This document shows, one piece after another, positions 32,015 to 36,359 of a stretch of 49,034 bases of DNA. This DNA is from Akkermansia muciniphila (GTDB lineage Bacteria > Verrucomicrobiota > Verrucomicrobiia > Verrucomicrobiales > Akkermansiaceae). Within the stretch, counting starts at the first letter, position 1, and each line of letters begins with the position of its first letter. Under the pieces are notes generated by a model, which was not told the DNA's origin, searched no databases, and saw nothing but the letters and a program-made list of their open reading frames with translations. Position numbers and translations under genes: made by a program. The DNA is taken from NCBI GenBank assembly GCA_945873305.1, contig CAMCCX010000009.1, forward strand, positions 1-49,034, read 5' to 3'.

Positions 32015-33109
32015 ATGCCGCAGCCCGACTTTACTGATGAAATCCAGCGCGCCCTCACCGAGCGAATCTTCGTTCTCGACGGGGCGATGGGCACCACGAT
32101 CCGGACTTACGGGCTCAATGAGTCCGACGCCCGTGGCGAGCGCTTCGCGGACAACGAAAAGGACCTGCTCAACAACGGCGACATCCTCTCGATCACCCGC
32201 CCGGAAATCATCGGCGACATCCACAAGCGTTTCTACGAAGCCGGTTCGGATATCTGCGAAACGAACACGTTCTCCGCGACCGGCATCGCCCAGAGCGAGT
32301 TCTTCGTCGAGGACCCGCGCGAAAAGGGCGGGCGCAAGGATCCCGAGTTTTTCCAGAAGATCCTCGAAAACCCGTTTCTGAACGACCTCGCCTGGGAAAT
32401 GAACGTCGAGTCATCCCGCCTCTGCCGCAAGTGGGCGGACGACATCGGCACCGACACCGGCCGCAAGCGCTACGTCGCCGGGGCCATCGGGCCGCTGACC
32501 GTTTCACTCACCAATTCACCCGACGCCAACGACTCGGGCTTCCGCGTGGTGACATTCGACCAAGTGCTCGCCGCTTATAAACATCAGGTCCGTGGCCTCA
32601 TCGAAGGCGGTTGTGACATCCTCATGATCGAGACGATTTTCGATTCGCTCAACGCCAAGGCCGCCGCCGTGGCGGTGCAGGAAGTCTACGATGAGGACCG
32701 TGTGCATCTTCCGGTGATCATTTCCGCCGCTGTCGGCCTGGGTGGAGAAACGATGATTTCCGCGCAAAAAGTCGAGGCGCTCTGGAATGCCTTCGCCCAC
32801 ACCAAACCACTCGCCATCGGGCTGAACTGCTCGCTCGGGCCCGACCTGATGCGGCCTCACCTCGAAGAGCTCTCCGAGTGCGCGGCCACCTGCATTTCCT
32901 GCTATCCGAACGCCGGCCTGCCCAACCCGCTCGCGCCGACCGGCTTCGATCTCGATCCGGAGCACATGCACGACTACATGGCGGAGTTCGCCAAAGCGGG
33001 CCTCTTGAATCTAGCGGGTGGGTGCTGCGGAAACACCCCGGAGCACGTCGCCGCGATTGCCAGGGCCGTGGCGAAATACGCGCCGCGGGAGGTGCCGGTC
33101 ATTCGATGA
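32015..33109 (+). CDS. metH: Methionine synthase, homocysteine-binding module as a separate protein
   Basis: This 364-residue protein corresponds to the first domain of MetH. FVLDGAMGTTIRTYGL is the barrel's opening strand. GLNCSLGPDLM gives the first zinc Cys, and GGCCGNTPEHV supplies the two adjacent Cys near the end. All three residues for activating homocysteine thiolate are present. The other MetH modules are encoded from 33600, so methionine synthesis needs both proteins. The protein ends cleanly three residues after a VPVIR tail, at the linker position. It is therefore a separate gene, not a broken one. An inverted-repeat element begins 7 bases after its stop. Confidence 0.93.
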   Translation: MPQPDFTDEIQRALTERIFVLDGAMGTTIRTYGLNESDARGERFADNEKDLLNNGDILSITRPEIIGDIHKRFYEAGSDICETNTFSATGIAQSEFFVEDPREKGGRKDPEFFQKILENPFLNDLAWEMNVESSRLCRKWADDIGTDTGRKRYVAGAIGPLTVSLTNSPDANDSGFRVVTFDQVLAAYKHQVRGLIEGGCDILMIETIFDSLNAKAAAVAVQEVYDEDRVHLPVIISAAVGLGGETMISAQKVEALWNAFAHTKPLAIGLNCSLGPDLMRPHLEELSECAATCISCYPNAGLPNPLAPTGFDLDPEHMHDYMAEFAKAGLLNLAGGCCGNTPEHVAAIARAVAKYAPREVPVIR

Positions 33110-33115
33110 GATTGA

Positions 33116-33147
33116 ACCGCAGAGACGCAAAGGTCGCAGAGGAACGC
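33116..33147 (+). repeat. Left 32-bp inverted repeat flanking the GxxExxY gene
   Basis: The arm starts ACCGCAGAGACGCAAAGG at 33116. It is the reverse complement of 33553-33584 with 29 of 32 positions identical. It begins seven bases after the metH module stop. Similar 'CGCAGAGACGC' sequences accompany GxxExxY genes in other genomes, as far as I recall, so the arms probably delimit the inserted unit. Confidence 0.85.
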
Positions 33148-33158
33148 AAAGGAAGATT

Positions 33159-33548
33159 ATGAAGGAATACTTGAACAAGCTTTCGGGTGAGGTGATCGGT
33201 GCAGCCATTGAGGTGCACAATGACCTGGGGCCGGGGCTTCTGGAGTCGAGCTACGAAGCCAGTCTTCAGCATGAACTGAAACTTCGAGGATATGAATCGG
33301 TGAGGCAATTGGGCTTGCCTATCAAATACAAGAATTTGGTCGTTCCCGAAGCCTATCGAATAGATCTATTGGTGGAGAATTGTCTAGTGATCGAACTCAA
33401 AACCGTTGAATCGCTGCTCCCGATCCACTCGGCACAGCTTCTCACCTATCTCAGGATGTCCGACAATCATCTGGGACTCCTCATCAACTTTCACACCGTC
33501 CGCCTCACCGACGGCATCAAACGCCTCGTCCACAACTTCCCGTCTTAA
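33159..33548 (+). CDS. GxxExxY protein, PD-(D/E)XK nuclease-fold
   Basis: A 129-residue protein with the defining signature GPGLLESSYEASLQHEL, where GLLESSY gives GxxExxY. VIGAAIEVHNDLG precedes it, and YRIDLLVENCLVIELKTVESL supplies the Asp and E-x-K pair of a PD-(D/E)XK nuclease core. QLLTYLRMSDNHLGLLINF closes the fold. The catalytic residues are present, but no target is known. The gene and its two inverted-repeat arms lie between the two metH genes, in the same direction. Base composition is lower in GC than the flanks, consistent with arrival by transfer. ATG 33159 is chosen over an upstream frame that reads into the repeat. Confidence 0.9.
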   Translation: MKEYLNKLSGEVIGAAIEVHNDLGPGLLESSYEASLQHELKLRGYESVRQLGLPIKYKNLVVPEAYRIDLLVENCLVIELKTVESLLPIHSAQLLTYLRMSDNHLGLLINFHTVRLTDGIKRLVHNFPS

Positions 33549-33552
33549 CTCC

Positions 33553-33584
33553 GCGTCCCTTTGCGACCTCTGCGTCTCTGCGGT
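33553..33584 (-). repeat. Right 32-bp inverted repeat flanking the GxxExxY gene
   Basis: This is the partner of 33116-33147 in opposite orientation and ends CTCTGCGTCTCTGCGGT. It starts four bases after the GxxExxY stop and ends 15 bases before the second metH ATG. The three mismatches between arms are transitions, as expected for an old, slowly decaying pair. Stem formation in the RNA between the two metH genes is possible and could affect their coupling. Confidence 0.85.
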
Positions 33585-33599
33585 AAACTCTTCTCCTAA

Positions 33600-36359
<2,760 letters not shown>

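What the first reader, a model, noticed from the sequence alone, without database searches (positions are those of the whole stretch)
33110..33590. GxxExxY nuclease-fold gene bounded by 32-bp inverted repeats, sitting exactly between the two metH genes
Arms at 33116-33147 and 33553-33584 match 29/32 in opposite orientation and closely enclose one small PD-(D/E)XK gene with intact D and E-x-K residues. The unit starts seven bases after one metH stop and ends 15 bases before the next metH ATG, so it interrupts an operon without damaging a gene. The layout suggests a minimal mobile or self-spreading element whose repeats may be its recognition sites. GxxExxY proteins have no established function.
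Basis: partly seen in the sequence, partly recalled or inferred. Interest (0 to 1): 0.78.

Follow-up and report, generated by a model that had tools for sequence, protein, structure and literature searches.

The report
Nuclease cassette with word-array arms
A small unstudied DNA-cutting-enzyme gene sits between two mirrored arms built from a repeated seven-letter DNA word, and the same arrangement, with a different word in each copy, surrounds this gene family across many bacterial and archaeal phyla and behaves like a tiny mobile element, one that no paper I could search describes.

Summary
Each arm is ACC plus 3-4 tandem copies of a 7-nt word (C-R-C-N-R-A-N, 8-10 nt apart). In 129 GxxExxY loci from related genomes, 83% have matched inverted arms (shuffled 0%, mismatched pairing 5%); in 77 named loci from about 19 phylum-level groups, including Archaea, 68% do (control 8%). 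The word differs between elements but is shared by both arms and follows the protein tree. Arms are strongly conserved at inherited sites.

The unit is mobile. At metH1-metH2 and pheS-pheT, close relatives show empty, full, gene-less, solo-arm or different-element alleles. Free and gene-less arm pairs are scattered through genomes.

RAYT transposases in the same genomes have their own, different repeats. Four-helix-bundle genes have a third arm class.

Not shown: that the nuclease binds the words or drives movement; no target-site duplication was resolved. One correction: the two "metH genes" are halves of one methionine synthase, fused in sister families.

The parts
32015..33109 (+). metH1: N-terminal (homocysteine S-methyltransferase) half of methionine synthase; left host flank
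   Evidence: ORF; PF02574 E=7e-75; fused in sister families
33116..33152 (+). left arm: ACC + 4 words (CGCAGAG 33118-33124, CGCAAAG 33126-33132, CGCAGAG 33135-33141, CGCAAAG 33145-33151), spacing 8, 9, 10
   Evidence: does not fold on its own
33159..33548 (+). GxxExxY protein, 129 aa, PD-(D/E)XK nuclease fold, predicted catalytic D69, E79, K81 plus Q93
   Evidence: TIGR04256, PF13366, AlphaFold2 pLDDT 95.3, fold matches, dN/dS about 0.05 against the ortholog
33549..33584 (-). right arm, inverted copy: ACC + CGCAGAG, CGCAGAG, CGCAAAG, CGCGGAG read on the minus strand; the last word abuts the GxxExxY stop codon
33600..36359 (+). metH2: pterin-binding, B12-binding and activation domains of methionine synthase; right host flank
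   Evidence: PF00809, PF02607, PF02310, PF02965

Best explanation
The 470-bp unit is a one-gene mobile cassette. Its two ends are arrays of 3-4 copies of an element-specific 7-nt word in inverted orientation, and its gene encodes a small Cas4/lambda-exonuclease-like PD-(D/E)XK nuclease. Shown: gene and arms form one unit, conserved together under purifying selection, present, absent, replaced or decayed at the same site in close relatives, and accompanied by gene-less arm pairs and solo arms. Inferred: GxxExxY subunits bind the words, which recur about once per helical turn and so on one face of the DNA. They bring the two arms together and cut or nick at the arm edges, so that the unit, or a gene-less arm pair recognised in trans, is copied or moved into new places. 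Insertions that survive lie in the short gap between a stop codon and the next start codon of housekeeping operons. It works like RAYT/REPIN but is not a member of that system.
For: Arms around most GxxExxY genes: 83% of 129 loci in related genomes and 68% of 77 named loci. Tandem words: 128 of 213 loci have at least 5 words in chains, 1 of 213 for shuffled flanks. Word positions 1, 3 and 6 are fixed, 2, 5 and 7 are element-specific and 4 is free. Word letters follow the protein tree: position 7 needs 7 changes against 22 shuffled, position 2 18 against 35.5. Arms travel with the gene to non-orthologous sites: at 70% or more protein identity, 95% of pairs share arms. Arm divergence 0.11 against 0.58 at four-fold sites in 28 orthologous pairs. 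dN/dS 0.03-0.13 in most pairs. Mobility: pheS-pheT is empty in G001 and holds a 493-bp element in G013 with 90-95% identical flanks; metH holds different GxxExxY elements in G007 and G065 with 94-96% identical flanks. Gene-less pairs: 18 of 55 sampled arms, some letter-identical to arms of the resident GxxExxY element in G010 and G032. Y1 transposases never share these arms. Arm density rises with GxxExxY count (rho 0.36, p 0.013).
Against: G018 (97% complete), and the incomplete G038, carry many arms whose word matches no resident GxxExxY element. No consistent target-site duplication could be read. A lone PD-(D/E)XK nuclease is not known to transpose DNA. No residue-to-word code could be resolved, as there were too few independent changes. 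About a quarter of the distant loci lack clear arms.
Confidence: 0.55

Rival explanations
1. The arms are mobilised by some other enzyme in trans, and GxxExxY is a passenger or a helper/repressor carried inside one class of arm pair.
For: Abundant arms without a matching resident GxxExxY gene in G018 and G038; 32 of 55 sampled arms have no detectable partner; the same landing sites are shared with four-helix-bundle elements.
Against: The association of this arm class with this one protein family holds across about 19 phylum-level groups; four-helix-bundle genes (0/30) and Y1 transposases (0/23) never carry these arms; no sampled arm pair is spaced over 500 bp, so no other cargo was seen.
Confidence: 0.22
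2. Homing-like spread: GxxExxY cuts element-free sites and is copied in by recombination; the arms are binding or protection sites.
For: Recurrent occupancy of the same conserved operon junctions (metH, pheS-pheT, several nuo positions) in many relatives; nuclease fold; element replacement between close relatives.
Against: Does not explain gene-less arm pairs at many unrelated sites or unrelated subfamilies with different words at one site; the flanks carry no words before insertion (empty alleles of 0-7 bp).
Confidence: 0.12
3. RNA-level element: the arms pair in the transcript to protect or process the operon mRNA, as in 23S rRNA intervening sequences.
For: The arms could form a long stem; co-directional operon contexts are preferred (35 of 64 distinct sites ++ against 12 --).
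Against: Left-right mismatches show no excess of sense-strand wobble (68 sense, 94 antisense, 171 transversions). Tandem words are not needed for a stem. No Rfam match.
Confidence: 0.07
4. Static host feature: the arms are operators for autoregulation of a host gene and do not move.
For: Strong conservation of arms and gene at orthologous sites.
Against: Clean presence/absence between close relatives, non-orthologous copies, gene-less pairs and solo arms.
Confidence: 0.04

Closest known systems
RAYT (TnpA-REP, PF01797) with REP/REPIN elements (PMC3116915, PMC8266576)
   Same: Single enzyme gene flanked by inverted repeats, gene-less inverted doublets dispersed in the genome, extragenic positions.
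   Different: The enzyme is PD-(D/E)XK, not a Y1/HUH transposase. A single arm is not palindromic (arm fold -1.5 kcal/mol against -11.1 for a REP of the same genome). Arms are tandem words that differ between elements of one genome; RAYT loci in the same genomes have different repeats.
S23p / 23S rRNA intervening sequence (four-helix bundle, PF05635; Coxiella IVS, PMC4990558)
   Same: Small ORF between terminal inverted repeats, thought to be selfish or mobile; dispersed PF05635 genes in these genomes also have word-array arms.
   Different: Unrelated protein, unrelated word class, not in rRNA.
Cas4 / lambda-exonuclease type PD-(D/E)XK nucleases
   Same: Fold and motif order D, E-x-K, Q-x-x-x-Y; best structural matches SSO0001 Cas4 Z 8.9; weak Cas4 profile hit E=0.04.
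   Different: 129 aa, no cysteine cluster seen in the invariant columns, no CRISPR context tested.
Rpn (YhgA-like, PF04754) recombination-promoting nucleases (PMC5350276)
   Same: Multi-copy chromosomal PD-(D/E)XK nucleases linked to DNA movement.
   Different: Different family (only PF13366 was matched); no word-array arms described in what I read.

Membership tests
TIGR04256 / PF13366 GxxExxY protein | profile score above the curated cut-off | tested here: met
   137.8 bits against 35; 132.7 bits against 22
TIGR04256 / PF13366 GxxExxY protein | PD-(D/E)XK core with D, E-x-K and Q | tested here: met
   invariant D69, E79, K81, Q93 in 44 sequences; model pLDDT 95.3 with REase-fold neighbours
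RAYT / REPIN | Y1 (HUH) transposase gene | tested here: not met
   the gene is PF13366 only; PD-(D/E)XK model
RAYT / REPIN | palindromic, hairpin-forming REP in each arm | tested here: not met
   single arms fold no better than shuffles, a REP from the same genome does (z -4.9)
RAYT / REPIN | dispersed gene-less inverted doublets | tested here: met
23S rRNA intervening sequence (S23p) | four-helix-bundle ORF inside 23S rRNA | tested here: not met
   different protein and site
Insertion sequence / MITE with target-site duplication | target-site duplication | tested here: inconclusive
   metH and pheS-pheT junctions gave no consistent duplication; the exact empty progenitor is unknown
Homing endonuclease gene | cleavage of the element-free allele | not testable with these tools
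   needs biochemistry
Known anti-phage defence gene | match to a PADLOC model | tested here: inconclusive
   only a weak Cas4 hit, E=0.04

The most novel reading that the evidence does not exclude
GxxExxY proteins are the founding enzyme of a new class of mobile element: single-gene, word-addressed cassettes in which a PD-(D/E)XK nuclease reads an evolvable 7-nt word repeated in both ends and mobilises itself and gene-less arm pairs. Four-helix-bundle (S23p-like) genes would be a second, parallel class with their own words. Word and protein would coevolve, giving a natural series of nucleases of graded DNA specificity in Bacteria and Archaea.
Probability: 0.4. Interest if true: 0.95.

Novelty: new variant of a known kind. 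Interest (0 to 1): 0.85.

Why it matters
A protein family annotated only by a motif, found in most related genomes and in about 19 phylum-level groups, gains a concrete hypothesis that can be tested at once: its binding site is written on either side of every gene. It would explain widespread interspersed repeats of the CGCAGAG / CACGGAT type, show how new splits or spacers arise in essential operons, and offer natural nuclease-word pairs for studying how DNA specificity evolves.

Tried and rejected
RNA hairpin: wobble asymmetry absent, no Rfam family. RAYT mobilisation of these arms: 0 of 23 Y1 loci carry them, although 16 of 23 carry their own inverted repeats, which also validates the test. 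Residue-to-word code: underpowered, not claimed. Search for solved relatives by sequence: none. Phage or plasmid carriage: none in 50,697 phages, 8 in 72,556 plasmids. Papers on GxxExxY, PF13366, TIGR04256 or the repeat strings: only incidental mentions; the library holds open-access papers only. Coding remnants inside the small gene-less pairs: none in 20, but clear ones in L201 and L226. Causal order of metH split and insertion: not settled (the tree needs at least 2 fused/split changes and at least 12 element-state changes).

Full report
WHAT IS THERE. The arms at 33116-33147 and 33553-33584 match 29/32 and enclose a 129-aa ORF, 33159-33548. It is a GxxExxY protein (TIGR04256 E=1.9e-40; PF13366 E=1.1e-38). 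Each arm reads ACC followed by four 7-nt words (CGCAGAG or close variants) 8, 9 and 10 nt apart. In the window this pattern occurs only at these two arms. The window is a whole contig of a 3.06-Mb, 171-contig genome that holds three GxxExxY genes. The second and third also lie between inverted arms, with other words: CGCAAAG-type around L002, and CGCAGAT with CACAGAT around L003, which lies between hisS and aspS.

A GENERAL RULE. I collected 133 GxxExxY loci from related genomes. Of 129 with enough flank, 83% have inverted arms scoring 16 or more, against 0% for shuffled flanks and 5% for mismatched left/right pairing. Words differ widely (CGCAGAG, CGCCAAG, CACGGAA, CACTGATT, ACAGGATTA, CGCGAAT and others) but are the same in both arms of one element, even when several elements with different words share a genome. 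In 80 named loci from about 19 phylum-level groups including Archaea (77 scored), 68% score 16 or more against 8% for mismatched pairing. Bacteroides fragilis L388, for example, has letter-identical arms GTTCACCACAGATTACACGGATTAACACAGATT.

WORD GRAMMAR. Of 213 loci, 128 have at least five C-R-C-N-R-A-N words in chains with at least two per arm; shuffled flanks give 1. Identity within an element against between elements, for positions 1-7.96/.89.88/.47.96/.89.63/.36.86/.55, 1.0/1.0.91/.63. Positions 1, 3 and 6 are fixed, 2, 5 and 7 are element-specific, 4 is nearly free. (The search pattern itself fixes part of positions 1-3, 5 and 6, so the contrast at 2, 5 and 7 is the informative part.) On the protein tree the letters change far less often than when shuffled (position 2: 18 against 35.5; position 5: 15 against 33.5; position 7: 7 against 22). 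Pairs of elements with non-homologous flanks share arms in 95% of cases at 70% or more protein identity and in 1-3% below 40%. So gene and arms travel as one unit. A residue-level code could not be tested.

SELECTION. Ortholog pairs have dN/dS of 0.03-0.13 where dS is measurable, except one very young pair (0.465). In 28 pairs at shared sites, arms differ at 11% of positions and four-fold sites at 58% (Wilcoxon p = 7e-9). Arms were delimited by left-right similarity, which may lower their divergence somewhat, but zero arm changes against 65% of four-fold sites (L024/L031) cannot come from that alone.

MOBILITY. At metH, 27 loci share the site. Relatives without the element have 7-nt gaps (L190, L200), solo arms (L199, L204, L212), a truncated gene (L201, L226) or a gene-less pair of another word class (L205). 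The element lies exactly between a stop and a start codon. At pheS-pheT, one genus shows empty junctions of 0-7 bp, CGCCAAG GxxExxY elements, four-helix-bundle elements, gene-less CGCAGATG or CGCAGAG pairs, and solo arms. G013 carries a 493-bp element where G001 has a few bases, with flanks 95% and 90% identical. G007 and G065, with 94-96% identical flanks, carry different GxxExxY elements at metH. G068 carries a GxxExxY element where G063 has the gene-less AACATCGAAC pair, with flanks about 92% identical. Genome-wide, an arm pattern found almost never by the reversed control occurs up to 100 times per genome. Of 55 sampled arms, 18 are in gene-less pairs 23-195 bp apart, 4 in pairs of gene size, 1 at 272 bp, 32 have no detected partner, and none has a partner beyond 500 bp. 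Near-identical gene-less copies recur within G038, G044 and G010.

CONTEXT. Distinct insertion sites favour operons read in the same direction (35 ++, 12 --, 9 +-, 8 -+). By my own reading of the flanking ORFs they include pheS-pheT, hisS-aspS, several nuo junctions and purD-pyrB. metH1 and metH2 are halves of one methionine synthase, fused in sister families and in two genomes of the same genus. The tree needs at least two fused/split changes but at least twelve changes of element state, so the split may be older than most insertions; cause and effect stay open.

THE PROTEIN. AlphaFold2 gives pLDDT 95.3. The best structural neighbours are Cas4 SSO0001 (Z 8.9), 3ijm (Z 8.8) and type II restriction enzymes; Foldseek's top hits are Cas4 and lambda-type exonucleases, none with E below 0.001. 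G24, G26, E29, Y32, D69, E79, K81 and Q93 are invariant in 44 sequences. It has no relative of known structure by sequence.

CONTROLS AND PARALLELS. Y1 transposases (RAYT) in the same genomes have their own inverted repeats in 16 of 23 loci but never these arms; their REPs fold alone, these arms do not. Four-helix-bundle genes (PF05635), even more common, have inverted word arms in 24 of 30 loci (mismatched pairing 4%) built from other words such as GTTGATGG, GGGGCTAG and AGACAGAAG, and never the GxxExxY type. Three small gene families thus each keep their own class of ends.

MECHANISM. Shown: a conserved gene-plus-arms unit that moves, decays and leaves gene-less derivatives. Inferred: the nuclease binds the words, about one per helical turn, and acts at the arm edges. 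The arms do not look like RNA stems. The weak points are genomes with many arms but no matching gene (G018; G038 is incomplete), the modest correlation of arm density with gene number (rho 0.36), and the unread target-site duplication.

KNOWN OR NEW. Nothing in the searchable literature describes arms around GxxExxY genes; papers outside the open-access library were not searched. It works like RAYT/REPIN (PMC3116915) but fails two of its defining features. I file it as a new variant of a known kind; it would become categorically new if the nuclease is shown to move the arms.

Noticed in passing
L153-L182, L298:1486-1943, L399, L408, L409, L413: Dispersed four-helix-bundle (PF05635, S23p-like) genes outside rRNA are also enclosed by inverted arms of tandem short words of a different class; they share insertion sites such as pheS-pheT with GxxExxY elements.
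   Followed up: partly
L205 (metH junction of G063); G000:C21:21469-21561 (L286); A further arm class built on the period-7 word AACATCGAAC occurs up to about 77 times per genome as gene-less pairs about 76 nt apart; in L298 it encloses what looks like a four-helix-bundle ORF (judged by eye).
   Followed up: partly
window 32015-36359: Methionine synthase is split at the homocysteine/pterin domain boundary in this genus and several sister genera but fused in others; the split point is the insertion site.
   Followed up: partly
L404 (pheS-pheT junction of G000): The window's own genome keeps only a degraded solo arm at pheS-pheT where close relatives hold full or gene-less elements or nothing.
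   Followed up: no
L061, L068, L076: Some GxxExxY loci have much longer inverted flanks (about 60 to over 100 nt, nearly identical), perhaps recent or nested insertions.
   Followed up: no
L031, L065, L085, G134:C285:2007-2348: Some GxxExxY reading frames stay open for 270-390 codons, extending through an arm; possible translational coupling or fusion with the neighbouring gene.
   Followed up: no
L418 (G048 pheS-pheT junction, 454 bp): A different, unidentified insert lies at the same junction next to one CGCAGATG-like arm.
   Followed up: no
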